Shown here in pieces: positions 2,916 through 61,126 of a stretch of DNA of 64,000 nucleotides. The notes under the pieces are model-generated. The model was not told where the DNA came from. It saw only the letters and a program-made list of their open reading frames with translations, and did no database searches. Positions within the stretch are counted from its first letter, which is position 1, and each line of letters opens with the position of its first letter. Source of the stretch: Jacaranda mimosifolia (lineage: Eukaryota; Streptophyta; Magnoliopsida; Lamiales; Bignoniaceae); NCBI GenBank assembly GCA_018894105.1, contig CM032117.1, positions 48,146,503 to 48,210,502 of the forward strand, in the 5' to 3' direction. The position numbers were made by a program, and so were the translations under genes.

Positions 2916-3810
2916 TATTATTGTTATGTTTAATTGTTCATTTTCAGTTCTCTATCTTTTCAATAATTTTAGTAAACGTTCTTAATTTCTTCAAGGTTTT
3001 TTTATCAGTTTCTTGAGGATTTTAGGAATATAAGATAAATAATTTTTTAATCTAACAAAAGAAATATTTCAAGATCAGTAGGGATCTTCATTAAGATGTT
3101 TATTCTATTAGTATGATGCTTTATATATATATATACACACACACACTAAATATTTTGAAACGTTAAACATTTAATGTTTTATTGATAAGTGCTTGAATTT
3201 TATCAATAAAACATTAAGAAATATATTTTTCTCGAGTCAAAGTTAGCAATTTGTATTTTATGTTTGGAGTACTTTTATTTGTTCTTTTTCATTTTCTTAT
3301 CAAAATTAAGGTTCAATCTTAGAATAAATGTGTTTAGGTATTTTCAGTTTAATATTTTATTTAGTGCTATAGATTTTGTCCATTATTTACTAAGTACCAT
3401 TAATTTCTCTATTTTTATAAATTTAGTTTACGTGTCTAACATGATATAAGCTTCATGCAATATCAAGAACAACAAGATATATTTGAGCCTTCACAAGTGT
3501 GTGTGTGTGTGTGTATATATATGTGTGTGCGTGCGCGCGTGCTTGTGTGTATATATGAAAAATTATAATAGAATTTTAATTGCATTAAAAGTTTGATAAG
3601 ATAAAAGCAGAAAAGTTTTAACTATTAGATTTTTATAAGAAAAAATATTTATGAATGGAGTGATCTTATAATTTTCAATAAAATATTTGTGAAATTTTAA
3701 AAATAAATTCATTTATACAAACTTATTTATTACTAGTAATTTTGAATCTAAATTGTTTTTATTATAACAAGATGATTTATTTATTTATTATTTTTAATTA
3801 TTTTCAATGA
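2916..3810 (+). repeat. Direct repeat copy 2 (~0.89 kb), unclassified
   Basis: Second copy of the repeat at 693-1580, with the same order of landmarks throughout. A TA/CA microsatellite at about 3121-3146 and a GT/TA/GC microsatellite at about 3498-3555 are expanded compared with copy 1. Homology fades just before the hAT MITE at 3820. Confidence 0.7.
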
Positions 3811-6560: not shown

Positions 6561-7407
6561 TTTTTTGCATGTCACATCTATTCAATAAATTAATATAAAA
6601 AATTATATAAAGATCGTTAAAAAATAATTTCACACGCAATCATGTATTTAAAGCATCTTTATACTGAATTTTTATTGTTGAATCAATTGATCAAATTTTG
6701 ACTTAAAAAAAACGTGTTGTAGGCATTAAAATGGACAAAAAAGTTCTTTTTAAAAAATAAAATATTCTAATTTAATTTATGAAATATAAGTTATTTTCAA
6801 AAAAGTTGGGACATGGGATTCAAGTAATATTTATAAATTGAGCATATAAAATTATTATTTAAATTTAATATTTTTTATTTATATTTATATTTATATTTTC
6901 TTAATTTTTAAATAAAGATACTTAAAAAAATCCATTTATTTATTTTTTTAATTAAGTTTGGACATGTCCCGACTTTTGATTTGGGAGGACGAGGGAAGGG
7001 CAGGGCTTCAAAGTTGAAGGGGTGGGGAGTGGTGGGAAATGAGGCATGGACTTTAAACATTTCGCATGTCTTTTTTTAGAATTTATTAATATTTTAATTT
7101 TATATTTTTAAATTTCATGATTAATTTTAGAAAAGCATGATTTCTACTGTTGATTTTTTTTAAAAAAATAATTTAATATTTTTAATTTCTCTAATTAATT
7201 TTTTGAAATTGAAGACTAGAAAATTTTTAAATTTTTGTTACAAATTAAGCACATGAAATGAAAAAGAAAAACACAAAAGATTAAAAGGATAAATTAAAAA
7301 AATTAGAAAATTTGTTAGAATTCCTATTACAATTTTAAGATTTGGTTATTTTATATTTTCATAAATTATATATATTTTTTATTTTACTTTATCGTTGTTA
7401 CTACTTG
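6561..7407. other. AT-rich intergenic DNA with one G-rich patch
   Basis: No gene was found. A short G-rich patch at about 6983-7045 interrupts long A/T runs; its origin is unknown. Confidence 0.5.
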
Positions 7408-7961
7408 CACTACAATAAAATTGTATATTAGAGGTACTAAAAATTGCCAATTAAATAGAATTATAGTGACATTTTTACATATAATGGCATTTTTCAGAAG
7501 TGCCATTTAAGTGGGTGTAGTTAAAGGTATGAATCTCACTATCTTATTCTTTTTGTGACATTAATAAAATGTAATAAGAAATGAATTAAATGACATGTTA
7601 AAATATAAAAAAAGTACATTAAATGACAGACTAACGTGTCACAAAAATTGTATATAGTGACGTATTAAAATGCCACAAAAAATCTCTTAAATGACATTAT
7701 AACATACCATAAAAAAAATGCAATAAATGACAGGTTAAAATGCCATGAAAGAATTTTTTTTTAATGATATATTAACATACCACAAAAAATATAGTAAATG
7801 ATATATTAAAATGTCACTAAAAGATTCTTTAAATGACATGTTAGCATGCCACAAAATAATACATTAATGGCATACTAAATATCACAAAAGATTTTTTTAG
7901 ATATAAATGTTAACCTACCCACACTCCCATATATATGTTAACCTACCCTTACTCCCCAATT

Positions 7962-8035
7962 GTGAGACTCCAACATGGTTCAATTGACTGTTCGCAAGAA
8001 TATAAATTTACCACTAAGCTATCCATCAATGTTCA
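7962..8035 (-). mobile_element. tRNA-like SINE head (fragment)
   Basis: On the minus strand an A box TAGCTTAGTGG (8021-8011) is followed at tRNA-like spacing by a degenerate B box TGTTGGAGTCT (about 7975-7965). This sits inside the CACTA left arm and interrupts its repeat pattern. It could be a SINE fragment or a chance match; the ends were not resolved. Confidence 0.35.
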
Positions 8036-9324
8036 ATATAATTAGAGATATTAATTAATTTGTATAGTTTGGAAGTACAACTACTCAATTATTCAAAAAT
8101 ATGGATGCACTCAAATTTATTATATGAAATAACATATTAAAGAAAGTTTGAGAGATTAATTTTAGAGATATAAAATATTCAAAAAATAAAGAGAGACAAA
8201 ACGTAATATAGGCGAGGAGAGAAAAAATTGACAAAAACTTAAATTTATTATACTTTTTAAGTATATGGTTAATTTAGTTAATACATTAACATAAATCAAA
8301 TAGGGCATCAATACATTAATGATAATATATGTGTGTGTATATATATATATATATTTGTAAATTTTATAGTTATTGATATACTTCTATATTATTTATCTAC
8401 TTTGTGATATTTTTTTATCTTGCACCATAATTAAGTTATGAATAGTATTTCCCTCTTTTTTTTCAAAAAAAAGTTATTGATACTAGTTAAATGCCTTTAA
8501 CATATTACTATGTTGGTTGTTTAGTAAAATGTCATTAGGTCTTTACATTTATTAATCAATTGACACTAAGTATTATATTATAATGATATTGTTCTTACTA
8601 CTATCACTATATTACTTTAAAATATCACTATACTATAAAATATCATTAATATATTCATTAACTATTGTGACATCTTTTTCACTATATTACTTTTATATAT
8701 GTCACTAAATAATTTGTGAAATCATTTTCAAATGAAAACATAATTAAATAACATTAAAAAAATTTAAGTAAAATTAATGGCATTGGTTGAATGCCTTGAA
8801 ATACATTTATATTGGCATTCATTTTTAATCAAATGTCATAATCTTTATTTGTCATTTATTAATCAAATGCCACTAAATATTTTAATGTAGTGGTATTTTT
8901 TAATAATTATCACTATATTACTCTCCTGTGTCACTACACCACAGAATGTCATTAAATTAGTGTCACTAAAATATTTCATGATATTTTTTTTTCTTAAAAG
9001 ACACCATAAATAAATATGAGTGGCATTTTCTAGAAAAATTAGTGGCACTAGCTAAATGCCTGCAAAATACATTTTTGTTGGTATTTTTAATCAAATGCCA
9101 CTATCTTATATGTCATTCAATAATCAAGTGTCATTAAATATTTTATTATAGTGGCATTTTTCTAAGACTAACACTATATTACTTTTATGTGTCATTATAC
9201 TAAAAAATGCCACTAAATACTTTTTTGATATTTTTTTTCAAATGACACCATAACTAGGTATTAGTGGCATTAGTTAAGTGTCTTTAAACTAAATGTATCT
9301 TCACATTTTCAATTAAATGTCATT

Positions 9325-9338
9325 AATTTATTTGTCAT
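9325..9338. repeat. LINE target-site duplication, left copy
   Basis: The 14 bases AATTTATTTGTCAT recur identically at 21226-21239. Joining the CACTA sequence across one copy restores the subterminal repeat pattern. Confidence 0.85.
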
Positions 9339-9482
9339 CTTTTTTTTGACACTAATAATTAGATGTCATTGTGAATCAGAGATGATTACATTAGATAAGT
9401 ATACAGGAAGATGATCCTCCCACATGATAGGTTTAGGCAAAGAAACAGAGGCTCTTGCTGGATAATAAGCCGCCTCATTCAT

Positions 9483-10118
9483 TCAACGATGAATAAAAGC
9501 AACACTACAATTTGCTAACTCTTCTAACATAGCTCGACAATCCAAAATCACTGATCCAAAATAAGATAAGTCTTCACTTTCGTTCAAAATAACTTTCACA
9601 ACAACTAAAACATCTAATTCAAGCAAGATATTTGACAGTCCTCCAAGTTTAACCCAGCTTAGGGCCTCTCTAAAAGAAAGTGCTTCTGCCATAGAAAGAT
9701 TGACAGAACCAACAAAAGGAATAGCAGCTGCAGCAAGAACAGTCCCATGATGATCTCTCAGAATCCATCCTGTGCCATATCTTTGATAAGATGAATTTAA
9801 TGCCGCATTAATATTGCATTTTAACCAACCTGTTGAGGGAAGAAGCCACCGTGTATTCACAGCTTGTTCTGTAGTCCACGCCATCTGATTTCTTTCCTTT
9901 TGTGTAGCGTTCCATTGATGTAAGGATGCATTGGCCAAATATAGCACATAATTAATAGTCCCAAGCTTTTCTTTCCAAATTACCTGGTTTCTGTTAATCC
10001 AGAAGCTCCATAGAAGCATGATCACTTTACATCTTTCCTCTGATTGAAGTCCACCCAATGCCTTATCAAGCCATTCATCAAAAGAAATTTCATTAGTAGG
10101 AAGAACTTTATCCACCAA
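9483..10118 (-). pseudogene. LINE ORF2: RNase H-like C-terminal domain
   Basis: A 211-residue open stretch. It holds the pattern W..P..GW.KCN.NAA..., a GWILRDHHGTVLAA segment, SMAEALSFREAL and LLELDVLVVVK, which matches the plant RVT_3 (RNase H-like) domain. That domain normally removes RNA from the RNA/DNA hybrid during target-primed reverse transcription. It lies downstream of the zf-RVT segment in LINE order. Frame breaks separate it from the upstream domains, so it is a relic. A host gene encoding a stand-alone RVT_3 protein is an unlikely alternative given the flanking LINE domains. Confidence 0.85.
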
Positions 10119-10159
10119 CTAACTTTGAGCCCAACATTCTTGCGCAAACTGACATTGCA

Positions 10160-10432
10160 CTAAAATATGCGCATTGTTGTTTCTGTCCCACTGCTGCAAA
10201 TTGGGCAAAGGGGAACAATATTAACATGTTTTGAAAGCAAATGATCTTTGGTAGGAAGACGGTTGCTACAAGCCCTCCAAACCATGTTTCTCACTTTTGG
10301 AGGCACTCTTTGCTCCCAAATTTTTCGCCAGACTCCTAATGTAGATTGGTAGTTTAAACCATTCTGATTTTCAACCGTCTTTTTGTAACAGCTCTTAACA
10401 GTATATTTCCTATTTAAATCCCAATGCCACAT
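10160..10432 (-). pseudogene. LINE ORF2: zf-RVT domain fragment
   Basis: A 90-residue stretch. It contains W.WDLNRKYTVKSCYK, then WRKIWEQRVPPKVRNMVWRA, then LPTKDHLLSKH and a C-x2-C pair (CPICSS). This is the zinc-binding zf-RVT module found between reverse transcriptase and RNase H in plant non-LTR elements. It is out of frame with its neighbours on both sides. Confidence 0.85.
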
Positions 10433-10806
10433 CTAGATATCATCACACCATCTGTTTGTTAAGGGAATGCTCATTATAAGGCCAGCATCTCGATTGCTAA
10501 ATAGAGAGGAGACCAATTCAGAGTTCCAGCAATTTCTTTCCTGATTCATGGCAATGAAACTGATCTATTGCAAACTTCGTGACTCAATTCTGAAGACACA
10601 AAAGGATTATCAATGTCGGGTAACCACGGATCCTTTCCAATCACAATGTTTTCCCCATTTCCAACTTTACGGCTGCATCCTCACTTAATAATGGATTGGG
10701 TAGAAAAAATGCTCCACCAAACGTAGCTTGGGTTATTGCCAAGCTTTGCTACTAAGAATATCTTTCTAGGAAAGTACTTTTCTTGGAATATCTTAGAATC
10801 TAAAGC

Positions 10807-12424
10807 TTATTTGTTTAACAGCAAGTGCCACAACTGTTTGCCAACCAAAGCAAGATTAGATTCATGGATCTTTCTAAAATCGAGCCCTCCAGAAACCTTT
10901 GGCTTAGAAAAGCACTCCCATCGCGTCCACCTAATCCCATCACAGCCATTTTCATTTGCTCTATTGTTTTGCCACCGAAAAGCATTCATCATTCTTTCCA
11001 AATCATCACATAGATCTTTTGGAAGGAGAAACACGCTCATAGCATAGTTAAGAATTGATTGAGCCACCATCTTTAGCAAAATCTCATTTCCCACTCTTGA
11101 GAGCATTTTTTTTATTCCAACTTTGAAGTTGACTCCAAACCTTATCTTTCACAAATTTTAAAATGTCTTTCTTTCTTCGCCCAATTAATGCAGGAAGGCC
11201 AAGGTAGGACATATGATCCTGCATCAACAAAACATTCAGTCTTCCACATAATTCAATTTTGATAGCTTCTCCTGTGTTTGAGCTAAAGAAGACTGAGGAC
11301 TTTTGGAAATTTATGAGTTAGCCTAAGGCAGTTTCATAAGCCTTAAGACAGTCTTTTATCACTTCGCATTCCTGCACTTAAGCTCTAAAAACATCAAGCC
11401 GTCGTCAGCAAAAAATAAATGAGTAATAGGCGAGGCACCTCAAGCAATTCTACATCCGTGTAATCTGCCCTGTTTTTCCTTTCTTTTGAGTATCGGCGAT
11501 AGTCCTTCTGCACACAATATGAATAGGTAAAGAGATAATGGATCTCCTTGTCGAAGTCCCTTACTCGAATAAATCAGCCCAATCTCATAACCATCATGAA
11601 CAATCTTGTAACTAACAGAAAAAACACACATCATAATCAGCTTGATAAATTGTTTATCAAATCCTAATCTCTCCATCATCTGGCTCAAAAAACACAATTC
11701 CATTCTATCGTACGCCTTACTCATATCTATCTTTAGAGATGTTATTCTGATTTTCCCCTGAGATTTCCTTCTGAGGTAATGTAGAGTCTCAAAAGCTATT
11801 AGCACATTATTTGTGATAAGATGACCCAAGACAAATGCACTTTGACTCTTTGAAATGATCAAATGCAAGATACTCCTTGGCCTATTAGCATTCATTTTTG
11901 AGATGATTTTATAGAAGATATTGCATAAGGCTATAGGCCTCAACTCTGTGATAACCTCCCGACTTTGTTTTTTAGGAATTAAGGTAATCAGCGTGCCATT
12001 TAAACCTCCTGGAAGACAACCATTACACAAAATCGCCAAACACTCCCTCATAACATTTGCTCCAATAATGTGCCAAATTTTTTGAAAGAAAGCTGGATTC
12101 ATTCCATTTGGCCCCGCGCGACTTGTATGGATACATAGAGAAAATTGCCTTTTTTACTTCTTCTGGTCTGAAGTCCTCTAATAACTTGTTGTTTTGCTGG
12201 TCAGTAACTTTCTTATGAATACATTCCAGCACCGAGAAATCTGAACTAGATTGCGATGTGAACAAATCCTCAAAATAATCATGAATGATTGATCCCAAAC
12301 CATCATCCCACTTCTTCCAATTTCCTCTAGAATCACGAATTTGTGTAATAGTATTACGTTTTTGCCAAGCCATTGCTTTAGTATGAAAGAACCTTGTGTT
12401 TGATGTCTCCCTTCTTAGAGCCAA
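10807..12424 (-). pseudogene. LINE ORF2: reverse transcriptase domain, frameshifted
   Basis: Reverse transcriptase of the L1 type, spread over at least three frames. 12023-12424 gives the pre-RT segment (NTRFFHTKAMAWQKRN...). 11440-12102 gives the palm motifs LKIDMSKAYDRMEL and GLRQGDPLSLYLFI. The catalytic FADD motif is at about 11400-11411 in another frame, and 10807-11106 covers the thumb region. The enzyme would copy the LINE RNA at a nicked target. Frameshifts and stops rule out activity. Confidence 0.9.
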
Positions 12425-12431
12425 AACTGTT

Positions 12432-12734
12432 TAGCTCTCTGTTTCCAAAAGTCATCTTGTTGTTGAAGAACCAGCAAATTCTCCCTCTGTACGGCCAAAA
12501 ACTACCCAACCGAATCTAGATCATGTCAATGTTTCAGAGCCCTCATTCTGGACTTACAAGCCTGAATTCATTCTCGAAACTAGTCACATATTTACTGCCC
12601 CAGGAGGAAAGGTCTCGACCACACTCTTCTAATTCCGTTGAACTAGGAGTCCATTACTCTTTATCCAACTGTCTGCGACAACCTCATGACAATTATCAAT
12701 TCTCAGCTAGCTATTCTCAAATTAGAATCGTTTA
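12432..12734 (-). pseudogene. LINE ORF2: linker between endonuclease and RT
   Basis: Decayed coding sequence on the minus strand that continues the RT-proximal region (WKQRAKQFWL followed by a stop). It runs up to the Harbinger insertion point, and the matching upstream part resumes at 19281. Confidence 0.6.
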
Positions 12735-12776
12735 GGGCTTGTTCTTGTGCCTTTTGGATGAATTGTAGAAAATGTT

Positions 12777-13890
12777 TTGGGAGAATGGGTTTTTGGGAGA
12801 AAATTTGGAGAATGTCCCATGTGTTTCTTTGTGTTTTGGGAAAATATTGAGAATGAGTTGGTTGTTTTTTTATATTTTGCGAGGAGACAAACTTTACTAT
12901 TTATGTCAAATCAGTTGTTTTTTTGTTGGATTTGTAGGGTGATAGTGATTTTTTTAATGTAATATATATATATATATGTATATTTATTTGTTGGATGATG
13001 GATATGTGTGTGTGTGTATATTATTGTAGTGATTAAGATAGTATTGTAGTTAAATGATGTTTAATTAATTTCTTTGATTTATTAATTTGGCATATTATAT
13101 TTTCTTTATTCAGAATATAATATATGCCGAATGACATTTTAAAAATGTTAAAATAATTATTAAAAAGAAAGTTAAGTATTCAAAAATAAATTTATTAAAC
13201 TAATAAAAAATCAAGATTAGTAAATTTAATAAAAAATCGAGATTAGTAAATTTAAAATAAAATTATGGTTAATAATAAATGTGTACGAACAAGTAAAAAA
13301 ATATATAATTAATTGATTCAATAATATGCCAAAAATAACTTTATATATTTTTATTGTTACACTACATTATAATATATAATTTATTAATACACTCAAAATT
13401 ATTTGACTTGCAAATAATGACATTACTATATTACTAGTATTATAACATATAATTATAAGCCGTAATTGAATATAATACTAATGATTTATTACATTTAATC
13501 ATATGTAGTACAAATAAATTATACAATTGCATTAAACAAAATAATATTAACAGAATTATATTGCCTATATTTATTTTCATTCAATGTAATGATTTATTTA
13601 GATAAATGAATGAATGAATCTAAATAAAAGGACAATTTGAATTAGATGTTTAGAATGTTAATTACCGTATAGAAGTACTTATGAATAATAGTAATAATAA
13701 TATTAATTTATTCCCAATCAGTGATATTTTTTTAGTTGGTCTTTAATAATACATGACTTGGTAAGTCGAAAAGTAATGTTTAACAATGGCATAATTGTTA
13801 TCCTCATAGATGTCCAGTATGTGTTTAATTCAATAATACCATAAAGTAAAGGCGATGCATAGTTTGCTAAACCCGACATGAAGAAACTTT
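12777..13890. other. Harbinger left non-coding arm
   Basis: AT-rich subterminal region without a gene. The first ~270 bp resemble the MITEs at 5826-6235 and 37831-38194. It includes a TA microsatellite at 12962-12978 and a GT run near 13005-13017. Confidence 0.55.
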
Positions 13891-13896
13891 GAACAT

Positions 13897-14815
13897 GTGA
13901 TTCCAGATTACTCCCATGGCGATGGTAGGGTGTGTGGCCTGCATCGTGTGGTGCTAACCTCGCTTATACTAGTGGATCTAGATGCGCGCGGCGTGTTCAG
14001 ACGTCGCATAAGCCCACATCGTGTGTGGCTGACCCAACCATCCACTGATGCCTTATCACTATTATTATGTTCCCCAACATATGGTGGAGGTACATATGGA
14101 GGTGCATGATTGGGATGTACGTCTACCCCTAATTATACTGGCGACCATGTCGGTGCCTGCGGTCCGCAGTAATGAGGGGATGCTCGAGATGCATTAGAAT
14201 CCACAACAAGAATTGGTTGAAGGTAATCCCCACGCTACTGTACTCCAGGATGAATCGCGTCCTCGATATTATCAGATGGGTCAACAGGTATCGGCTCTGC
14301 AAAAATCTCCCGTAACAAATCATATCGGGGCTCCCCCCGCTCAAAATATCGTGTAGCTAAAGGCCCAAGCTGCAAAGGAAAATAAATTAGAGAAATATTA
14401 CATTGGTTTGCTAAAAAATAAAAATTAGGAAAAAAAACCAACATTAAATGGAATCATTTTGTGCATCGAATATTATGCTTGCACGAGCAAACCTCTCACG
14501 CAACTCAGGTGGCACATACGTCTCCCCCGTACGTTCATTATGCCGCATGCCAGGATGTTGCATGATTATGCTGACTGTTTCGTACCTATTCTTCAAGTCG
14601 TAAAATTGTTCAGTAACGAACGATACGGTGGAAGGCCACTGGAAGTGTCGCCTCAACTTGTATGCCAATTCTGGCATACATATCTCAGCATGCATGTCGT
14701 TTGTCAATGACTCAATGGTGTTAGCATTTAGCAACATGTGGATAAATCTCTCCTCGACAGCTGGCCCCCACACATCAGGGACTTGAGAAGTAAGAGCATC
14801 AACTGATCGACGTCA
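13897..14815 (-). CDS. Harbinger MYB/SANT-like accessory protein (exons approximate)
   Basis: Minus-strand coding sequence of the second Harbinger gene. The 14444-14812 exon encodes an N-terminal part with a W at the start of a trihelix/SANT-like fold (VWGPAVEERFIHMLL), then LAYKLRRHFQWPSTVSF and YDLKNRYETVSIIM. A likely intron follows, ending with the acceptor TTTGCAG near 14370. The next exon reads LGPLATRYFERGEPRYDLLREIF, a known continuation in these proteins. Downstream, 13897-14230 may encode a proline- and glycine-rich C terminus, but stops interrupt it. In Harbinger elements this protein helps the transposase enter the nucleus and bind the ends. No start codon is firmly set, so the gene may be broken. 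Confidence 0.6.
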
Positions 14816-17480
14816 ACTCATAACAACACCTACAGTTGCATAAATAATGAATATTAAAATAAATGCACCGATATACATACACATAAATCTTGAAATTAAA
14901 CATATTAAATAATGCATGGGGCATAGTGCATTTAGAAAGACACGCAAATCATACATTCGAAGTTACAGTAGTCCCAACCGTAAAATTTAAACATTACTAA
15001 AACACAAATCAAACATCATGTCCTAACATCACACCACTAGTAGCTTAATAAGTACAACAACCAGAAGGATCAAAATGACAAGTATGACAAACATAGGGAC
15101 ATTTATTTATGCCAAAAGGGGGAAAATATATGTTCAAATCAAGAATTTTGTAAGGGTGTTAAATTAAGTAAGAAGCCATCATTTGACATCTTTTAAAAAA
15201 AATATTCGTTACAAATTTTAGAAGACATGCTTTCACCACAATTTAAAATAAATTCAATTGACCACATTTACGTGAGTTTTATTGCACTTACCCCCATTCA
15301 AGATAAATTGAAATAGTTTTACGCAATTATCTTACAAATTAATTTTAACTATCTATGCGTATTTACAAAAAGTGGAGTAACAATTATATGTAAGTCGCTT
15401 GCACTAGCTTTTCGATTTGGTCAATGTAAAAGAGTAATTGAAGGGGCAAAAAAAAAAAATTTTTTATAATATAATTCAAAAAATAATACATTTGACATAT
15501 TTGATTGTACATACTTTATGTGAGAAATATACAAATATATTTAATTTGGGTATATTTAATTTGGGTTGTTAGATTTAAAATATGAAATTATACCTTTTAT
15601 TTTGATGATTAGTTGATGGTTTACTTGAATTGTATGTTAATGCTTTATTGTACTAAATTAAAATAGTGAGTACCAATAATAAAATTTTATATATTTGGAC
15701 TCCAACTTTTTAAATGGCTCCATATATATTTTGAGACCATGACTTTTCTTTAAATAACTTTCATTAAAACCACAAAATGTTGAATGGGCCTATTTATATT
15801 CATTTGTAATACTATATATTATCTTTTAATTTCAATATATATTGTAGTTTACTATCTTTTTATGTAATTTTTTTTAAGTCAATGAGAAAAATGATTGAAT
15901 TTGCAATAGAATACATTTGCTACGATTTTAATGTGAGATGAATTATGTAATACATTTGCTATAATTCTATATAAAACCAAGGTAAACGTTAATAAATTGA
16001 ACACATTTTTCACTAATGGTCCTAAACTATTTGCAAAAAATTGGTGCCTATTAAAGGTTAATAAAGAAATCACTAAAAGGGGTAAAACTTATTTGCTTTC
16101 TAACTTTTATTAATCAAATCAAATTCTTAAAGTATCTATCAAAACCCTTGAAGAAGGTTCATGAATTTAATCAATAACATTAGAAGCAAAATATATATAT
16201 ATACACACACACACACACATTTTCCTTTAATTTCAGTGCTAATCTCCCACTAATGGACAAATCTTTATTTTGTTCATTCTTTGGTTCTTATGACAATCTA
16301 CATCATTTCTAATTAATCACCTTGGAAACATAATACAAAGTACAGGATCATTTCTACAATATCATGCATAACTTATAGTACGGCTATAATATAACCTTAA
16401 ATTAGTGCTTGAACTCGAAAAAAACATCATTTGTAGAGATCTTCATAGTTTATACATAACAATAACATGATTTACACATAATTAAAAGATAACAATGACA
16501 ACTATAACAACTAATGCAGCTGCTGGGGAGCCAAGAGGAACCGTTTCATACGTTAACAACTCATAATGTCAATTCTTACCTCAAGAAAATGTTGGGTGGT
16601 GTGCTTGGAACAATGACATAAGAAGCCACGTCCCTTGTGGCACACTCCCACCCATGTTTTCTGTCACTTCATATACACAAGCCGAACTTATAATGGTTTG
16701 ATCGACCCAATGCATGACAACATACATGACCAATCCTAAAGATGAAGAAAGAAACAGGATGCAACTAGAATGCTTAACCAACTAGAACTACAAATTGCAA
16801 CGAGAAACCAAAAAATGCAGAAGCAGAATCTGCAGAACCCCATGGGAGACAGAAACAGAAACAACATGCAAAGAGAGATCGAAATCTGCAGAAGTAGAAA
16901 CCAGAAACAGAGGACAGATGCAATGCAAGCTACATGAGGACATATCAAATAGGGGATAGCCAACTAAGCCCAACATGAAGTTCTAAAAATGCAGGACACG
17001 TCCCCCAGTATGGTAACCACATACTAACTCAACACACAAAGCATATATGGAGTGATTAATGGACAGACTCAATGCTTAATGCTCAGGACTCAAGACCATC
17101 TCAACCTAAAATCCATGAGACTTATAGTAAGCACATAGGCTTATACCAACATAATGAACCACCCTTATTCACACTCAACTTCTGTAGTATGACAGAAACA
17201 TGCCCAAGAAATCACAAAAATGTGACTATAAAACTGAACACCAAAGAATGGTGTTTGAGAATATCAGATAATGGTCGCCATTGAGGTATGACAGAAACAT
17301 GCCCAAGAAACCCCAAGCATGGCGCCTCTGAATTAGCTTTATGACATGTATCAAATGACATAAAGCAATTTACCAATGCATTAAAACACTGAAATCAGAA
17401 CAATGTTCACTTCAAACCATATAAAATGCATGACAAAATTGTTGACTGAAGCTTATCAAACTACCTAGTAATATATTGAA
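14816..17480. other. Harbinger interior, no gene recognised
   Basis: Mostly AT-rich non-coding DNA. It contains a TA/CA microsatellite at about 16190-16220 and a purine-rich low-complexity stretch with recurring CAGAA words at about 16735-16920. A transposase with DDE motifs would be expected in a complete element, but none was found on either strand. Confidence 0.5.
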
Positions 17481-17639
17481 CATATTAGTAGGCAAATCAT
17501 AGCAAGCAATCATGATGAAGTAAATCTATCAAAAACCCAAAATAGCATTTCTTTAACATGTTTAAAAAACAAACTCCAAAAAGGGCCAAGTTCACAGAAC
17601 TCATAGTACACCTCAAAGTAGAAGAAAGAGTATCCTGCA

Positions 17640-17721
17640 AATCTCCCCCTTTTGAACCAAGCTCTAGAAATTTGTAATCCCCAACATTGTCACCACAGCT
17701 AGATGATTTTGGGGATGCCAT
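17640..17721 (-). CDS. Possible first exon inside the Harbinger element
   Basis: A minus-strand ATG at 17721 opens MASPKSSSCGDNVGDYKF and continues to about 17640. There GATTTGCAG or nearby sequence could serve as a splice site. A TATATATA box lies about 100 bp upstream (17820-17827). It is on the same strand as the MYB-like gene, so it could be that gene's or a lost transposase gene's first exon. This is inference only; no family is recognised. Confidence 0.25.
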
Positions 17722-18800
17722 TGTGCAAGTGTGTGAAGTGTAAGGGAGGTGTCATAGTGTTTGCAATGTATGTTGTGTGCTATGGAAAGGAAGTGAGTTT
17801 GGGTATGCTAGAAGGGTTGTATATATAGTGTAAAAGAGATTCAACATTCAAAGGAAATGCAACCACTAACAATGTAATTTCTGTCAAAGAATAGTATGGA
17901 TGTGATATAGCAATGCCTTTGTTAGCCTTATGCAAAGAAAACAAAAGACACTACCTCAGTCAGCCTTCCATTATTGAAGACCATGTGAAAAGGGGAAAGG
18001 TAGGAGAGTACACACACGAAGTTACAGTAACAACTTTAGCCACTACCAAGTACAACAGACCAACTATACAAGTGTTTCAGTAATGGCTTAAATTGTTATC
18101 CTCATAGACACACGTGAGTAGTATAGATATTACAGCAATAAATTGATTACCAATTCCAAAACAGAGAACTCTTGCTGACTTTCAAAACTAGCAAAACCAA
18201 AAAATATGTATATGTTGTTGGGTTACATTCAGAGGCGTTCACAGAAATTAAACCAATTTCAGACCAACAATCTCATAAAGCACATACGCCAAAACACCCT
18301 GGACCCATGCCATGTAAGAAATGCTTCAAAAACCTATCAAAATTTTGGAAAACACCAACTCAAAACAGATAAACCCATAACCTAGGTGTATTGACTCCCA
18401 TACAGAGGAACAACCCACAACCGAAGCAAGCAGATGATGGCTAAATACGAATAAACCCTAAATATGGCCTAAACATGCAACAAACAACAACAAAAATAGA
18501 CAGATTAGGGCATAATATCAACAACCTAAGCAAGCAATATTAATGTTTTCCCCAAAAATCATAGAAAAATTTCTGACCAAATTCAATTTTCGTGACGTTT
18601 CAGTATAACCCAATACTTATGCGCATAAATATGAAATGATGGACATGGTCCTCATTATAGTCTCGCCGATGAGGCTTTCAGTTTTTTCCCCAAACTAGAT
18701 TGGGGGAGTCCATCAACCAAAATCGCGATTGCAATAGGAGTTGCGACTAGACGGAGCCTTCGGGAGAGACGAGAGATGTGAGCCCATGAATATAAACTGA
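17722..18800. other. Harbinger interior, no gene recognised
   Basis: No convincing coding sequence. Composition is intermediate, and the only promoter-like sign is the TATA motif at 17820-17827 (minus strand). Confidence 0.45.
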
Positions 18801-19098
18801 GGGCAAACGTACAACAACATTCAATCGCTGAAATGGGTGTGACTTTTAAGCCTTCTGGTGGAGTAATTTTTCAGAAAAATAGAGATTGGAATGTGGGAAC
18901 AGAGCAGACGAAGATTGGGGGAGAGAGGAGAAATGTGGGAGACATTAAGGGCAAACGTACAATAATATTCAATCTAGGAAATGGGTGTGACTTTTACGCC
19001 TTTTGGTGGAGTAATTTTTCAGAAAAATAAGGGAGAGATGAGAAGTGGAGACTGGAAAGTGAGGAGAGCAAACGAAGATTGAGGGAGAGATGAGAAGT
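18801..19098. repeat. Tandem repeat, two units of ~148 bp, Harbinger right arm
   Basis: The block starting GGGCAAACGTACAA at 18801 recurs at 18949 with few changes. Each unit includes AATGGGTGTGACTTTTA and a purine-rich tail with GAAGATTG and GAGAGA words. Repeated subterminal units often bind transposase or accessory proteins; that role is inferred here. Confidence 0.75.
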
Positions 19099-19280
19099 AT
19101 GTCAGGCAGGGTCAGGGTAGGGTTAGGTAGAGTTATGGTGTTTTGTAAATGAATTCTGGGAGTTTTTTTGGGTATTAAAAGGTTGAATTCTAGAATTAAA
19201 ATGGGAGAATGTGTATGCATTTTGTATTTGTCCTAGGAGTTGGAAAATGTCCTAGGAAACACAAGGAGAACAAGTCTTTA

Positions 19281-19996
19281 GTTTTTATTCAAGCTTCATG
19301 CCGATAAGGTTGAAGAAAGATAGGATTATGATCCGATCCCGCAGATTCCAAATTGAACACCTTTGCTTCTTTGAAAAAATTAAACCAAGCCTGAGAAACC
19401 AACACACGATCAAGTTTCTCCTTGACCCATTGTTTGTTCCTCTACCTCTTTCCTATGTAAAAGGATATCCTCATAGCCCCAAATCTCGAAGTCCACATGA
19501 ATCAATTATAGCTTGAAGTCCCTCAAAGAGCCAAAAAGGGTGAAGACATCGACCCATTTTTCTTCTGGATGGAAGAGATCATTAAAATCTCCAACGCAAC
19601 ACCAAAGATGGGACGATCTATCCTTAAGATTACACAACAATGCCCACAACTCTCTACAATGAGTTCTTTTCGGAAAACCATAAAAACCTATTAGGCGCTA
19701 AATTTTTGTACGATTGATATGAACTTCTACATCAATATCATTCCTAGAATAACCAATAAGGTTTGCCATACCTTTCTTTCTCAACATCATATCTAGTCCT
19801 CCTCCATTATGAATACTATCAATCGCAAATAAACCTTCAAAACCCAGCTCCACTTTTACCTTTTCTATTTTAATTTTGTCAACCATCGTCTCCATAAAAA
19901 AAATAATATTGGGCTTCTTAAATTTAACTAAGTTTTTTAAGACTCAATTGTCTCTAGGTTCCCAAGCCCACGAAAATTCCAACTTAGAGTACTCAT
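19281..19996 (-). pseudogene. LINE ORF2: endonuclease domain
   Basis: From the ATG at 19996-19994 the minus strand reads MSTLSWNFRGLGN, the usual start of the plant L1 endonuclease. It is followed by METMVDKIKIEKVKVELGF with GGL (about 19895-19698), a GDFN motif further down, and the C-terminal LDRVLVSQAWF...SDHNPIFL at about 19420-19300. The enzyme nicks target DNA to prime reverse transcription. Several stops interrupt it. The domain ends at the Harbinger insertion, and the remainder continues from 12731 downward. Confidence 0.85.
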
Positions 19997-21140
19997 TTCT
20001 CTCGGCTGGCCTGGAAACCAGCACCCGCCACTTGAACATTTTTTGGCCCAAAATCCAACTCATCATTCTCTAATGGGCTTGGACTATTAAACTCATCCGC
20101 TTCCAAATTGTTTAATCCATCCTCTGTATTACGCCATTTGGGGTCTGAGATGATCAACATATTAGTATCCCCATACTCCCTTACTGGCAGTTTATTTCCT
20201 TCTTTTGTAACTAATCCACTTTCCCCAATTTGACCTATAGTCTTGCCATGTTCAGCGTAATTTTTGGCCATGCCCTGATTTTCTGCCATGCTAACATCTT
20301 TTCCATCGATACTCATCCGGTCCTTCTCCTGTCCATTTTTCGGCCAACTTTCTTCCAGTAAGGCGTATCGGAGCCACCTCTTTCCAATTCCAAATTGTTG
20401 CTTCCGATTTGATGCTCGTAGCCAAGTTCCATATGCAAACTCAACGAAATTGTGATCACAATCATAAAGCTTGGCACATAACATTTTCGAGTGACCTAAG
20501 ATTCCACAGAAGAAGCAAAATTTTGGAAGCCTCTCATATTTGAAATTCACCCTAAACCAATCTCTTCCTTGTTTCTTTAATTTCATTCTTCTTTTGATCG
20601 GCACTCTAACATCCATAGAAACCCTAATTCTCATAAACAACCTCCATATTCACCTTAAATTATTCAGATCAAATTCTAAATAAGTACCTATATAATCACC
20701 AATATTTTTACATATACGCTTATAGAGAAAGCCAACAGAAAGGTCAAAAATATGTACCCATGTATTAACATGATTGAGGAAAATGTTTTGAGGTTGCTCC
20801 CCAGGCATGACTTACTTTAAGAGAAGAAGCTTTTGATCAAAGGTCCATGGGCCTCTGGATAGAATACACTGCAAATCCATATCATGAAATAACTGAAATA
20901 GACATGTAGATTGATTCAATTCCTTGATACAGATCCCTTTCACTGGTTGCCAGATAGTTGCCATAGTGTTCTTAAATGCCATAAAATTAACGTGGCTGGA
21001 TGTCAGTAATCTACCCACTATACAATACTAAGGTTGAATAGATTCATCTTCTCCATCAAATATCCTTCTACAATGAGTCTTCCTTTTTCCTCCTCTTCTA
21101 GCGATACCCTTGCGCAGTTATCTATTAACTCTTGGTCCAT
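19993..21140 (-). pseudogene. LINE ORF1: nucleic-acid-binding protein (DUF4283 + CCHC)
   Basis: The N-terminal part (20812-21018) reads GRLLTSSHVNFMAFKNTMATIW...GPWTFD, matching the DUF4283 region of plant L1 ORF1. The C-terminal part (19993-20640) holds CFFCGILGHSKMLC, a C-x2-C-x4-H-x4-C zinc knuckle. ORF1 proteins coat the LINE RNA. The two parts are in different frames because of decay near 20650-20810. The ORF1 stop TGA (19995-19993) overlaps the ORF2 ATG (19996-19994) as ATGA. The 5' end near 21140 is approximate. Confidence 0.8.
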
Positions 21141-21239
21141 AACTTCAAACTAGAGAAACTCTCAAACAACCTTATCACCAAGGATAAGAAATACTAACTT
21201 GTCATGGAGATAAGAAAAAACTCACAATTTATTTGTCAT

Positions 21240-21375
21240 TTATAACCAAATGCCACCAAATATGATACTATAGTGGCATTTTTTTTTTACGACTATAACT
21301 ATATTAATTTTTTGTGTCATTATCTTAAAAAATGTCACTATGTTGATGCCACTAAATATCATATTTGTTGTAGTG
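21240..21375. repeat. CACTA subterminal repeats (right arm)
   Basis: After the LINE's right target copy, the same alternating AAATGCCACCAAATAT and AGTGGCATTTTT motifs resume and lead to the terminus TTTGTTGTAGTG at 21375. Confidence 0.75.
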
Positions 21376-24300
21376 TCGAAGCTCAGAATTGGAGCTATAG
21401 TCATTTCCTAAGTCAACAAATTTGATGAGGTTTTTGCTCTGAAATGCATTTGCACGGAGTTAGAGCTTGGAATCTTTTATGAATGATTTTTCTCCCCTTT
21501 TTGATTGTAGGCGTTGATATTTATAATTCTTAAGTATTTTTCGGGCCTTGACCTTTAGGTCTAGAGTTCGTCTTGAAAGCTTACTTGGTTAAGTTTATTA
21601 GCATTTTATTTAGTTATTATTTATTTAATCAAGGTTGTTTATTTATTATTTTACTTTTTACCCTTAGGATGTTATTTTTTCATATCAATCTTAAATTGTA
21701 TTATTAACAATGTGCTTATAAATTGATAAAAAGTTGTTAATTGATTAGGGACAAGATTATCGAACACAAAAACCTAGCAATAAGGCATTGTTCTGTTGGC
21801 ACTCAATAGAGGATTTTGTCCTTAAAAAATGTTTCAAACAGTGAAAGATATGATAAGTAATTTATAAACTAAGTCAAAAACTATAATTAAAAATTTAACA
21901 TATATAATTATGTTTATGATAAATTTTGAGATATATAATTATGTTTATGATAAATTTTGAGAAAATTAATCGATATATTATATTAATACTTAGTATTTAT
22001 AATTAGTTCTATTTGTAAAGAATTCATAATTAATTTTGAGATTCAGTTTATAATCAACTAATAGTTTATTTAACTTAGTAATAAAGTAATTTAATAAATA
22101 ATAAATATTGCTAAAAATTTTAATAATTAATTTGATATTTGATATTCAAATGAATTTTGAGTTTGGATTTATTATTGTACTAAAATTACTTGTGCTCTAA
22201 TAATTATAATTTTTTTTTTGGTCACATTTCGTAATCATTGTTGTGATAGTTTTGATATTTTTGAGTTTTTATAATAATTGCAACCATAAGTAAGTCTAAC
22301 AATAATAGTTCATCAATAATAATATGTAAAAAGAAAAATAGTGTTTGAGAACTTAAGAAAAGATATTGATTCTGTACGAAAGTGACATTAGGGTTCTTTA
22401 TGAGAATTGATGCCACTCAAAAATGGAGCCAGGTCCTTTTTAGAAAACAGTACAGTGTCAGTTTATCTTATTAGAAATACAGAGACTTACTCTTCTCGAG
22501 AGTTCTTCTATTCTGAGAAATTCGGTAAATGATGATTTCTTGTGTCTCTTTTCTGCCTGGGACTTGGTACTTATAAATTTTAATTAAGCTTGGTGGGACT
22601 AGGCTCATTAGAGTTTTTCTGCCCTCGGGCTTGGCTTGTCCTTTGAGCTTTTTACTCATTTATTTAGTTAATTAATTTTAGGGTTAATTGGTCATATTTA
22701 GTCAAATTACCAAAGTATCCTTAAATCCATTTTTAGTCACATAAGGAATCAACTCAATTGAATGAGTTTCTACTCTTCGAAAGTACTTTGCATGGAATCA
22801 GAATTTAATATTTTTTGTAAAATGATTTTATGTATCCATTTTGGCTTTGAAAGTTGATGTATAGTGGCTAAGTGCTTTCTGAGTTTTGGCCTACTTGGAT
22901 CTGGGTGCCCATCTTGATAGGCTGAATTCCTTGGACTCATTGATCTTTTACTTAATTATACTGTGTTTAATTGAGCTATGTTATAGTTTTATTTATTTTT
23001 TATTTTTTATTTTTTAACACCTTGGATCTTTTTTTTTTTTTTGTGCATGTATTAGATATCATTAAAAAATACAATTTAAGATAGAGTAAAATAGAAAAAT
23101 ATAATTTAAGAAAATATAAAATAAGTAAGTCTCATATTTATAATAGGAAAATCAACAAATTTTCTATATCTTTCAATTTATAATTTTAAGTTTTTATATG
23201 CTCTCATTTTATATAATCAATTTGTAATGGCGAAGCTGAAAAATTTATAATTTGAAATTTTTTAAAAATAATGATAAAAATATGATAATATATAATAAAA
23301 ATTTATAAAAAAAGTTAAGATTAGAAGTTTCACTTTTCCAAAAATTTAATTATAAAAATCTAAAAGTATATATAAATTAAAAAAAAAAAAATACACATTA
23401 AAAAATTTAAATCCCTCAATCCCAAAAACATAGGTTGACTGAAAAGCAGAGTCCAATTTCAAATTCCCTCGTCTTCTTCCCTCCACCAACCCAGATTTTT
23501 TATAATATTTATACAACTTTGTAGGTATATTTTATACAAAAAGTGTGATTCAAGGTCTAGACTTTTTATTATAGTAATATTAAAATTATTTTTTAAATAA
23601 AATATATTTTACTATATAATATGTGAAATCTTTTGTAGGTCTTTAATTGAATATCAATTAAAAATAACTAACCAAAGATTGAATAAAAAATTATTTTTTC
23701 TTAAAATGTGAACTTTAATAAGATTTAAATAAATTGTAGAAAAATTATGTTAGTATCAAAATTATTAAAAGTTGAGAAGTTTTGAATTTTAACCGATACA
23801 TGTCTAGAGCTAGACATATTTGTTTTTAAATAATTTATATATAAATCATATAATATAATGCTCATTAATTTTTTATAAACTATAAATGATATTAACAATT
23901 ATAATATAAATAACATAATGAATTCACATTAAACAAAAATAGCTATAAAGTTGGGACTTAATAATAAAACATTTAAATGCAAAACATTTTACTAATATAT
24001 TTTTAGTACTGTGTTTATCATATCAATGATAAAATATTTAAATCTTGTTCTAGTTATAGTTAAAATTGTAACTATAAAAAGAAGCCCACAATAAAGTGCA
24101 AAAAGAAAAAGTAGTAATTAACAATTAGACCAAGGGGCACCACTCAATGAAGCACAACTCAATAAAATGACATCATTTTATAATTAAAAAGTAGAAAAGA
24201 AAAAAAAAAAAAAAAAAAAGCAAACATGGGCGGTTAAAAAAATCACATACACATCCACACTGATAATATGGTAGAATTGCAAATAACCCCTCTCTGTGAT

Positions 24301-26266: not shown

Positions 26267-29200
26267 TGTAGCACCCCCTCTCCGGTTGAGCCCTAGTTGA
26301 GGCACCATTCAGTTCAGTCTTAATTCAAAACCCCTAACGAGTAATAAGCCATCAAAACATTTCAAACTTATCAAAAATAGCAGCGGAATTCAACTTAAGT
26401 AACCTCAACAAGAATTATCAGAGATAGCACCATACTTTAACTTAATCAATTTTCAAAAATATCTATATACAAGCTTTAGTGATCCCATAACACTCAACAT
26501 AAGTACTAAGTACATACCATCAAAAATTCCAAAATGTTCAACATAATACATATACCCTGCAGATGTCAAATTCAAACATAACATATCACAACATCTCTAG
26601 GGTCACAAAACATGCTCAAGTATGCCCATTAGCAAATATACACAGCTATTCTAATACAAAATCATACTTGCCGATCTAACCGGAAGCCCAAGCTTATCAT
26701 CCAGTCCCGTCTAAGAAAATATAGAAGAAACAGGGGATAAGTCCAAAGGACTTAGTGAGGGATATTCATAAGACAAAATTTAGGGATCTGTAAGGGAAAA
26801 TCAACCTAACAAATTGTCAATTATAAACAAGAATAGAAATAGATCGGATGCAATCAATCAAGTATCAATTTATAAACGGATCAAATACAGACAGTCAAGA
26901 ATGGTCACAGAGACTAACAAGTTCAAAGCTATCGAAAAGTACTAGCTCTGGGGTTGTGACTGTCGGCTCGAACGACCTGGGATCGTCTCAACCGAACCTG
27001 CTCGGGAGGTATAGAGTGTCTCAACCGATCACAGTCGGGAGGAAATACAGACAGCTCGTTTGACCTGGACAACTGCCCGTTCTGGACAAGAAATTTCACT
27101 ACCCTTGTTGCTCTATGAGCAGGGTACAAACGATCATACTGCAATCAAAATATGGATCACAGCAGAACATACTTATCAGATTCACCTTATCATTAGTTAA
27201 GAGCTTACGGCTTATCCCATGCATATAGCAGGGATTAACGTCTCGTTACTCAACCAAGTATCACGGGCTTATGACTTATCCCATGCACACAGTAGGGATT
27301 AACATCCCATTACTTGTTCCAAGATTTTTGGGCTTACGGCTTATCCCGTGCACACAACAGGGATTAACATCCCGTTACTCAACCAAGTCTCACGGGCTTA
27401 CGGTTTATCCCATGCACACAGTAGGGATTAACGTCCCGTTACTCCCATATAATGATTACAAACAGTAACAGATAACAGAACGATCAAATAACAATAAGTC
27501 ATATAACAGAACGGATGGATAACACACAAACAGATAACAGACGGTTAGATAACAAAACTGACAGATAACGGATAGTCAAATAACAAAACAGACGAATGAT
27601 AGAATAGTATAGATAATATAACAGACAGATGGCAGAACAGTTGGATAATAGATGACAGACAGAAGTTCTGAGCGCCAAAATATATAGGAAACAGAGTCAT
27701 AATCAGAAATAACCTTCACAAGAGCGTTCAAATCAGATAACAGATACCAATCAAAATTCAAACACAATTCAGATTTCAAATAATCAAATTACGGTACAGA
27801 AACAGAGAACCCACATAGGGGTTTATTCCAATAATATATAAATAAAAGAAGTGCCAGGTTGGCAGACCCTCACCTCCACAGTCTCATAAAAAGCTACTAC
27901 AATCTGCCGTCTACTAATCTGTGCGACCACTTTCTCCGTCACCTAACCAAGAGAGTATATTCATAGTTAAATCCACATTCAACCTTAATTTTTACTAGCA
28001 TACTTATCAATATTCCAAAACCACTAATTATCCACTTAACATAGTAGTTATAGGGTTTAAGCGGTGTTATCAACACAAATCTACTAATTAAGCCACTAAT
28101 ACAGAAATAATCATGAGATTCACCTCAATTATTAAAGAAATATAATCCGGTTCCTATTTACATGTCATCCTCATATCATCATCCCAAAATATCAATAATA
28201 GTCCAATTATCTCAATTAACCCAATTCTGCCACTTAGATCTCAAATTCATGAAATTAGGGTTTTCTTATTACAATACTTGAAATTTCCCATAATCTTCAC
28301 AAATAATGCTATCCAATTTTACTAAACTCATACTAGCACATGCATACACTGAGTCTTAGTCCCATATCATCTCAAGTCACCTAATTATCATATCTCAAGT
28401 TTCCATTTCATAAATCATAGTTAAATTGCTTAATTGTCTCAACTAATCCTAACATTACATAAAATAATACAAATTCAGGCCCACTAATTACACTATAGTT
28501 CATGCATGGTCTCGATATACATATATATAATCCATATGACAACCTCATCTCACAACATAGTACAACATTTGAAGCAATACGGAACAACATGTATATATAT
28601 AACCAAACCCATTTCCCAACTCTTTTACCCACGAATCCGCATAACTGGACTTCGAAACCACGAACCAAGGACACCACTGCAATCTTTGCGACGAGACGAG
28701 GATTCTGTCTTGAAACCGCCACAGCGCCGTCGTCGCCGGCCGCTGCCGAAAACTGGCAACCACCACAGAATTTCTCCTCTTTACAAGAGCTATCCAATGG
28801 TCCCCTCAGTTCTAAATTTCACGGCATGTAGCTACCGAAATCGAGTTTCAACAACCAAGAAAATCACTTCCACCACCAAACTCCGATCATTCTCTCTCAC
28901 CACCGCTGCCGTGCAAAATTCCCATGCAAGACCACCAATGAGTTCTCCGTGCTGAGAGCTCTCCAACTGTCCGCCCAGAATCCCGATCAGTTCACCCTAC
29001 CGCCGCCTAGCGTGAAACCTGCGAGGTGGGTTTCTTCCACCTTCTTGCTACCAGTGGAGAGATGCCCGCTCAATGGTGCATGTGTGTGTAAGTGTGGTTG
29101 AAGGGTGAAGGGAGGTGTTTAAATGATGTGGTGTGGCGTGAAATGTTGCTGGTGAAAGAAAAAGGAGAAGGAAGAAAGAAGAAGAAGGAAAGGAAAATGG

Positions 29201-33899: not shown

Positions 33900-34547
33900 A
33901 TTGAGAAAATAATAAAGTAATAACATTGATAAAATATTTAAATATATTAGAAAAGTATTTAATAAATTTAAAATAAAAACAAAACAAAAATAATATAAAA
34001 ATATATTATCAAAAAATATAAAAAAATTTCTACTAAATGAACTTTAAATTAATTAAAAAGAAAAAAATATTATTATATTATGCTAATTGGGGAAAGAGGT
34101 CCTACAACTAAAAATATAGAATTGTACTACAAATAATGTAGAAATAAAAATGTAAAAAGAATAATTGTAGAATATCTAAATTTACATATGAGATAAATAA
34201 AATATTTATATATTAATCTTGTGATAAATTAAATTTGGAAGATAGAATTTTGTGAGAAAAGTACTTAATATGCTTATAAACTATTTTCAAAATTATAAAC
34301 TTATTTAGTGAGATAAAAATATGATAAAGATATATTTTTTGAATTATCTTATGATATAGGAATCTATATTGCAATTCTGGATAAACACAACATGATATTT
34401 TAGTTATAATAGATAAGTTGATCGTATTAAAATAAAATATAAAAGTAAATAAACAACAAATGAAAAAAATTCAATTGAATTAAAAAACTCAAAATTCTAA
34501 GAATTTGACATGTGGATAAAATTGCACAATTAGAATCAAAATTGTAC
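33900..34547. other. AT-rich Helitron-like body, right part
   Basis: AT-rich non-coding DNA. From about 34465 it resembles 36385-36484 and the complement of 44063-44170, sharing a CTCAAAATTCTAA..AATTT block. It ends with the palindromic GCACAAAATTGTGC near 34558. Confidence 0.4.
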
Positions 34548-35145
34548 AATTAGATGAGCACAAAATTGTGCTATAAATAATAGTACTAGCATGTGTCTTG
34601 TACGATGCACTGATTTTTTTTTTAATATTGAATAAATTATTTTATAATAATATTTATTTTACTTCATGTAATTAAAAATGAATCATAATTATTTTTAGTA
34701 TTTAAAGAAACAAAATTTATTACTAATTAAATAAAATAATATGCATATTTCAATTTAAAATATTATGATTGAAGATAATTTGTATTTAAATAAGTTGTGG
34801 AATATGAAGAATTGTTAACTCTAAGTTTATAAATTATACAAAAACCAATTAGATGAGCACAAAATTGTGCTATATATAATAGTACTAGCATGTGTCTTGT
34901 ACGATGCACTGAATTTTTTTTTTAATATTGAATAAATTATTTTATAATAATATTTATTTTACTTCATGTAAATAAAAATGAATCATAATTATTTTTAGTA
35001 TTTAAAGAAACAAAATTTATTACTAATTAAATAAAATAATATGCATATTTCAATTTAAAATATTATGGTTGAAGATAATTTGTATTTAAATAAGTTGTGG
35101 AATATGAAGAATTGTTAACTCTAAGTTTATAAATTATACAAAAAA
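34548..35145. repeat. Tandem duplication, two nearly identical 299-bp units
   Basis: The unit at 34548-34846 is repeated directly at 34847-35145 with only a handful of differences. Each starts AATTAGATGAGCACAAAATT and ends AAATTATACAAAAA. The near-identity points to a recent event compared with the surrounding decayed repeats. Confidence 0.9.
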
Positions 35146-53480: not shown

Positions 53481-53595
53481 TATGTGCTCCGCCGACTGCC
53501 AATTATCAGCGGCTGCCGCCAGCCATAGCCAACTCAACTATAGGCTGGCGGGAGTTGGGGAGAGGGGGTGGTGGGCAGGTGTGGGGTGTTGGAAG
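53481..53595. other. GC-rich patch split by the copia element
   Basis: The GC-rich sequence continues at 61581-61660 after the copia element. A similar patch lies at 62795-62960. No coding domain was recognised. Confidence 0.5.
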
Positions 53596-54044: not shown

Positions 54045-54059
54045 TTCTCCCACCTGGAC

Positions 54060-54810: not shown

Positions 54811-54813
54811 ACA

Positions 54814-55077: not shown

Positions 55078-55083
55078 AAGTCC

Positions 55084-56217: not shown

Positions 56218-56282
56218 CCATTTGCAACCTATAGTCTTTCAACCTTGGGGCAGATCAACTAACTCCCACACATTATTCCCTT

Positions 56283-57893: not shown

Positions 57894-57931
57894 TGAAATT
57901 GCAACATGGACATTTGCCTACTGTCAAGCCA

Positions 57932-59023: not shown

Positions 59024-59028
59024 CAATA

Positions 59029-59767: not shown

Positions 59768-59845
<78 letters not shown>

Positions 59846-60411: not shown

Positions 60412-60416
60412 CAATA

Positions 60417-61113: not shown

Positions 61114-61126
61114 TCTATACCAACTC
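61114..61126 (-). other. Copia primer-binding site (degenerate)
   Basis: The minus strand reads GTTGGTATAGAAG next to the 5' LTR end, a decayed form of the TGGTATCAGAGC initiator-tRNA site. Confidence 0.7.

What the first reader, a model, noticed from the sequence alone, without database searches (positions are those of the whole stretch)
7408..21375. Three-level nested insertion: CACTA, then LINE, then Harbinger
All three boundaries are readable to the base: CACTA termini at 7408 and 21375, a perfect 14-bp LINE duplication (9325-9338 / 21226-21239), and a TTA duplication around the Harbinger (12732-12734 / 19278-19280). Three different mechanisms, three ordered events. The order of insertion is fixed without any dating.
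Basis: partly seen in the sequence, partly recalled or inferred. Interest (0 to 1): 0.75.

Follow-up and report, generated by a model that had tools for sequence, protein, structure and literature searches.

The report
Three plant transposons nested in order
In a plant genome, one jumping gene landed inside another that had itself landed inside a third; the sequence shows which came first, but such nests are ordinary in plants.

Summary
The nest is real, and the order CACTA-like, then LINE, then Harbinger-like is supported. (1) CACTA-like element: 7408-9338 plus 21240-21375, 2,067 bp without the LINE, no coding capacity found. Its internal repeat units (spaced 261-307 bp) read straight across the LINE site. 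(2) L1-type LINE, minus strand, 9339-21225, 5,341 bp without its insert. It has an exact 14-bp duplication and an A8 tail; pieces match DUF4283, zf-CCHC_4, RVT_1, zf-RVT and RVT_3. Of 106 relatives matching both flanks, the 24 whose matches come closest to the site all span it with 0-2 residues unaccounted for. (3) Insertion 12735-19277, 6,543 bp, TTA duplicated, ends matching at 9 of 11 bases (2 of 2,000 shuffles do as well). 'Harbinger' is the best label but not proven: no transposase was found, the Myb-like match is below cut-off, and one end lacks the leading G. The weak point is the outermost insertion: the CACTA flanks read TTG and TCG, not an intact 3-bp duplication, and no empty site could be examined because the own-genome search did not complete. 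The kinds are known; interest is low.

The parts
7408..9338 (.). Left part of a CACTA-like element without recognised genes: terminal CACTACAA, 34/70-bp tandem repeats (7556-7919), repeat units of about 260-306 bp from about 8480, first copy of the LINE target duplication at its end
   Evidence: the 8 ORFs of 50 aa or more that overlap the two CACTA parts (3 of them run over its outer ends) match no Pfam family above cut-off
21240..21375 (.). Right part of the CACTA-like element, ending TTGTAGTG
9325..9338 (.). LINE target-site duplication, left copy (14 bp, exact)
21226..21239 (.). LINE target-site duplication, right copy
9339..12734 (-). 3' part of the LINE: A8 tail (T run 9340-9347, one base from the duplication), RNase H (RVT_3 in 9483-10118), zf-RVT (10160-10432), reverse transcriptase (RVT_1 in 11440-12153), linker up to 12734 (which includes one TTA copy)
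   Evidence: broken by stops and frame changes
19281..21225 (-). 5' part of the LINE: ORF1 with DUF4283 (20650-21027) and zf-CCHC_4 (19993-20649), then the endonuclease region (about 19943-19281)
   Evidence: three endonuclease pieces have no Pfam hit of their own but the region aligns to relatives many of which carry PF03372
12732..12734 (.). TTA target duplication, left copy
19278..19280 (.). TTA target duplication, right copy
12735..19277 (.). PIF/Harbinger-like insertion, 6,543 bp, ends GGGCTTGTTCT / AGACTTGTTCT (right end read inwards); about 150-160-bp tandem repeats near the right end (18621-19108)
14444..14812 (-). Myb/SANT-like ORF fragment inside the Harbinger-like insertion
   Evidence: PF12776 E 0.0037, 18.6 bits, below its cut-off of 23.6; no homologue found

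Best explanation
An ordinary three-level transposon nest in a plant genome (plant: inferred from the named LINE relatives; the species is unknown). First, a non-autonomous CACTA-like DNA transposon of about 2.07 kb was present (its own insertion is inferred from its ends and repeats). Then an L1-type LINE of about 5.3 kb, near full length to judge by its domains (inference), was copied into one of its internal repeat units by target-primed reverse transcription, minus strand, leaving a 14-bp duplication and a short poly(A) tail (duplication, tail and continuity shown; mechanism inferred from the family). Last, a 6.5-kb PIF/Harbinger-like DNA element was pasted into the LINE's ORF2, between endonuclease and reverse transcriptase, duplicating TTA (duplication and continuity shown; family inferred). 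The order follows from containment. As it stands the LINE is broken by the insert as well as by stops and frame changes, and no transposase was recognised in either DNA element.
For: Exact 14-bp duplication, 0 of 2,000 shuffles reach it. CACTA repeat units span the LINE site. 24 of 24 LINE relatives whose flank matches leave at most 45 window bases unaligned span the Harbinger-like site with 0-2 residues unaccounted for, out of 106 of 120 that match both flanks. Frame continuous over the joined site, stops included. TTA plus 9 of 11 end bases, 2 of 2,000 shuffles. LINE domains in the expected order.
Against: CACTA 3-bp flanks differ (TTG/TCG). No transposase match in the 8 ORFs overlapping the CACTA parts or in the 31 interior Harbinger-like ORFs tested. 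The right Harbinger-like end starts with A instead of G. Of the 106 relatives, 46 leave more than 6 residues unaccounted for: 25 have fewer residues than expected (-11.3 to -238.3) and 21 more (7.7 to 11.7); in all 46 at least 136 window bases lie unaligned. 14 of 120 relatives did not match both flanks. No empty site in another copy or genome was seen.
Confidence: 0.9

Rival explanations
1. The order is right (so this rival overlaps with the best explanation) but the innermost element is not PIF/Harbinger: another cut-and-paste element with a 3-bp duplication, or a decayed composite that only resembles it at the ends.
For: No transposase among 31 interior ORFs tested, Myb-like match below cut-off, no protein homologue, right end lacks the leading G, no longer similarity between the two subterminal regions.
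Against: TTA duplication, left end fits G(N)5GTT as given for PIF/Harbinger ends in PMC2213677 (passages read), 10 of 14 end bases match (that paper allowed up to four mismatches in 14), and a Myb-like ORF is expected in this superfamily (recalled).
Confidence: 0.15
2. The outermost 7408-21375 unit is not one inserted CACTA element but a local repeat array that happens to have CACTA-like ends.
For: TTG/TCG flanks give no intact duplication; no transposase; CACTACWA occurs 3 times and TWGTAGTG 4 times in the window.
Against: Ends agree at 11 of 12 bases; the right part carries the same repeat family as the left part, in direct orientation, and also matches it in inverted orientation, as subterminal CACTA repeats do.
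Confidence: 0.07
3. Assembly artefact: separate transposons wrongly joined.
For: No reads or second assembly could be examined.
Against: Exact duplications, LINE frame continuity and repeat-unit continuity at both inner sites would hardly arise by misjoining.
Confidence: 0.01

Closest known systems
Non-autonomous CACTA (En/Spm) elements; compared with soybean Tgmt* (PMC2613891, passages read)
   Same: CACTA terminal repeats of about 12-13 bp with a few mismatches, direct and inverted subterminal repeats
   Different: Only 2.07 kb, no coding capacity found, 3-bp duplication not intact; Tgmt* is 20.5 kb with a transposase gene and an ATA duplication. The repeat motifs were not compared
Plant L1-clade LINEs; compared with poplar Celine (PMC11288735, passages read)
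   Same: DUF4283 in ORF1, ORF2 with endonuclease and reverse transcriptase, terminal poly(A), target duplication of 10-30 bp (average 15 in Celine; 14 here), insertion into other transposons
   Different: Has an RNase H (RVT_3) region and zf-RVT, whereas the passages read name only endonuclease and RT for Celine. Shorter (5,341 bp against 6,114 bp from Celine's quoted coordinates), broken by stops and frame changes; clade not tested by a tree
PIF/Harbinger-like elements, including those with nested insertions in Medicago truncatula (PMC2213677, passages read)
   Same: TTA duplication, G(N)5GTT left end, size within their range, subterminal tandem repeats also seen in subfamily MtPH-A6-4 (60-bp units there)
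   Different: No transposase recognised, right end begins with A, Myb-like ORF only below cut-off. There PIF elements mostly receive insertions; here the element is the one inserted

Membership tests
CACTA (En/Spm) | Terminal inverted repeats beginning CACTA | tested here: met
   CACTACAA at both ends, 11 of 12
CACTA (En/Spm) | 3-bp target-site duplication | tested here: inconclusive
   TTG/TCG, 2 of 3 bases; too short to tell decay from absence
CACTA (En/Spm) | Direct and inverted subterminal repeats | tested here: met
CACTA (En/Spm) | Transposase (autonomous members only) | tested here: not met
   8 ORFs overlapping the two parts, no family above cut-off; hence at most a non-autonomous member
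Plant L1-type LINE | ORF1 with DUF4283 and zinc knuckle | tested here: met
   PF14111 (two pieces) and PF14392, all above cut-off
Plant L1-type LINE | ORF2 with endonuclease and reverse transcriptase | tested here: met
   RVT_1 E 5.8e-18; endonuclease region only through relatives, many bearing PF03372, no own Pfam hit
Plant L1-type LINE | Poly(A) tail and variable-length target duplication | tested here: met
   A8 and 14 bp
Plant L1-type LINE | Place in the L1 clade of an RT tree | not tested
   no tree was built
PIF/Harbinger | TTA/TAA target duplication | tested here: met
   TTA both sides
PIF/Harbinger | Terminal inverted repeats of 14 bp or more with G(N)5GTT | tested here: inconclusive
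   10 of 14 bases match; motif met at the left end, the right end begins with A (criteria from PMC2213677)
PIF/Harbinger | DDE transposase (autonomous members) | tested here: not met
   31 interior ORFs of 50 aa or more scanned, none matched a transposase; some shorter or overlapping ORFs were not scanned; hence at most non-autonomous or decayed
PIF/Harbinger | Myb-like second ORF (recalled) | tested here: inconclusive
   PF12776 18.6 bits against cut-off 23.6; 16.4 bits for the longer query

The most novel reading that the evidence does not exclude
The nest may have a fourth, outer level. The CACTA-like element begins 14 bases past the inner end of the left arm of a 311-bp inverted repeat pair (7092-7393 and 23080-23382, 71% identical), as if it had entered a larger long-TIR element; and the innermost insert may belong to an undescribed PIF/Harbinger-like lineage whose only recognisable gene is a divergent Myb-like one.
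Probability: 0.15. Interest if true: 0.3.

Novelty: new member of a known kind. Interest (0 to 1): 0.15.

Why it matters
It is a clean worked example of relative dating by containment across three transposition mechanisms, and the internal CACTA repeat offers an empty-site control without a second genome. Nested insertions in plant genomes are well described (for example PMC2213677, passages read; also PMC2672092, a program for the 'paleontology' of repeats, seen only in the search listing), so no open question becomes testable.

Tried and rejected
Rejected: chance duplications; separate elements merely lying side by side. Led nowhere: protein homologues of the Myb-like ORF (2 and 269 candidates, none under the E-value limits of 0.001 and 0.01); a transposase in the Harbinger-like insert (only stray matches below cut-off); a further LINE copy in the window (none at E 1e-8 for 9339-12731, the only part tried); a longer similarity between the two ends of the Harbinger-like insert. 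A possible alternative CACTA duplication, TCG at 7392-7394 / 21376-21378, would need 13 extra bases at the left end; noted, not adopted. Empty sites in other copies or accessions could not be looked for: the search of the window's own genome was asked six times in the same form and never answered; whether a plant genome is held there is unknown. Papers seen: passages of PMC2213677, PMC2613891 and PMC11288735; all others only in search listings.

Full report
Observation. Every coordinate in the finding was checked against the sequence. The CACTA-like ends stand at 7408 and 21375; read inwards they agree at 11 of 12 and 19 of 28 bases. The 14-bp LINE duplication at 9325-9338 and 21226-21239 is exact; 2,000 dinucleotide shuffles of the two junction zones gave a longest shared word of 12. 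The TTA pair at 12732-12734 and 19278-19280 flanks ends that match at 9 of 11 and 10 of 14 bases. It is the only TTA/TAA pair with 9 or more of 11 in the zones examined (12700-12775, 19240-19320), and 2 of 2,000 shuffles gave one.

LINE in CACTA. The CACTA-like element contains repeat units 306-307 and 261 bases apart, and a last copy lies beyond the LINE, in the right part. With the LINE and one duplication copy taken out of the count, that last copy stands 221-224 bases after the one before it (arithmetic), somewhat closer than the others. With 100 bases on each side of the LINE joined and one duplication copy left out, each of the three earlier units aligns across the joint as one stretch. 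Scores are 124, 168 and 184, against 85, 86 and 115 for the better flank alone, and at most 86, 118 and 118 for 300 joins to a shuffled right flank (the shuffle moved base pairs of neighbours as blocks). The same scores for the window as it stands were 59, 94 and 75 on the left and 99, 116 and 132 on the right. The earlier units thus serve as built-in empty sites, and the LINE entered an existing CACTA repeat unit. No relative from another locus or genome was available.

The LINE. On the minus strand the pieces carry, in order, DUF4283 (two pieces), zf-CCHC_4, RVT_1, zf-RVT and RVT_3, all above cut-off. The three endonuclease pieces have no Pfam match of their own, but relatives, many with PF03372, align there. 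Stops and frame changes are frequent. Without the insert and one TTA it is 5,341 bp. The T run at 9340-9347, one base from the left duplication, is the A8 tail. A 14-bp duplication fits the 10-30 bp, average 15, reported for the plant LINE Celine (PMC11288735, passages read).

Harbinger-like insert in the LINE. A search with a read-through of part of the broken ORF2 found 654 relatives, of which 120 were listed and available. The two flanks were then aligned to these 120 separately, unjoined. 106 of 120 matched both flanks; 14 did not. Where the two matches together leave at most 45 window bases unaligned (24 relatives), all 24 leave 0-2 residues unaccounted for. For 46-200 bases 23 of 26 are within 6 residues, for 201-500 bases 12 of 48, above that 1 of 8; in all 60 of 106. 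The 46 misfits all leave 136 or more window bases unaligned. In 25 the relative has fewer residues than the window bases allow (-11.3 to -238.3), in 21 more (7.7 to 11.7). I read them as matches that stop short in the decayed linker, or linkers of other length (inference, not tested). The relatives were found with a query that itself passed over the insert, so the sample leans to proteins that have both regions, but the spacing was measured on separate alignments. The frame that carries the endonuclease end also carries, with stops, the linker on the other side when 240-base flanks are joined.

What the insert is. The TTA duplication and a left end with G(N)5GTT point to PIF/Harbinger (criteria from PMC2213677, passages read). 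The right end begins with A, which misses that motif, and beyond the ends the two subterminal regions show no marked similarity. One ORF (14444-14812, minus) resembles Myb_DNA-bind_3 below the cut-off, and no homologue was found for it or for a longer read-through. In all, 31 interior ORFs of 50 aa or more were scanned (1, 10 each); one search lists some more that were not scanned. None matched a transposase; the few matches were to unrelated families below cut-off. It is therefore filed as Harbinger-like, non-autonomous or decayed.

The outer level. The CACTA-like element has no intact 3-bp duplication: TTG against TCG. The 8 ORFs that overlap its parts give no transposase. Its own arrival is inferred from its ends and repeats. 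The 311-bp inverted pair 7092-7393 / 23080-23382 (71% identity, 131 bits; highest of 40 shuffles 35.6) brackets it and may mark an older long-TIR element, but no outer boundary or duplication was established. Shuffles may flatter it: AT-rich stretches of this window match one another at about 60% identity and up to 84 bits under a looser scoring, under which the pair scores 166 bits.

Mechanism. Shown: containment, two exact duplications, continuity of both interrupted sequences. Inferred from the families: target-primed reverse transcription for the LINE, cut-and-paste for the other two. The order needs no dating because each inner element interrupts the outer one.

Judgement. Nested transposon insertions are well described in plants (PMC2213677, passages read), though I did not look for this very combination beyond one search (18 papers hold the four terms, 12 listed, only one opened). 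Interest is low.

Noticed in passing
7092-7393 and 23080-23382: Inverted repeat pair, 311-bp alignment, 71% identical, 131 bits (highest of 40 shuffles 35.6), bracketing the CACTA-like element; a possible fourth, outermost level.
   Followed up: partly
7392-7394 and 21376-21378: TCG occurs 13 bases before the left CACTA end and directly after the right end; an alternative duplication would need extra bases at the left end.
   Followed up: no
18621-19108: Tandem repeats of about 150-160 bp (64-91% alike) near the right end of the Harbinger-like insert.
   Followed up: no
17641-17830 (minus strand): Inside the Harbinger-like insert, a TATA-like stretch followed by a short open frame that looks like a first exon (read by eye); no Pfam match for the frame 17497-17751.
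   Followed up: partly
53593-61575: Copia-type LTR retrotransposon: direct repeats 53593-54044 / 61122-61575 at 87-89% with Retrotran_gag_2, gag_pre-integrs, RVT_2 and below-cut-off integrase matches between.
   Followed up: no
694-1557 and 2916-3795: Direct repeat blocks about 2.24 kb apart, 79-97% alike, unassigned.
   Followed up: no
34547-35144: Tandem duplication with a 300-bp period, 97-99% identical, presumably recent.
   Followed up: no
26952-28695 and 31761-33350: Large inverted repeat in several blocks, 73-81% complementary, unassigned.
   Followed up: no
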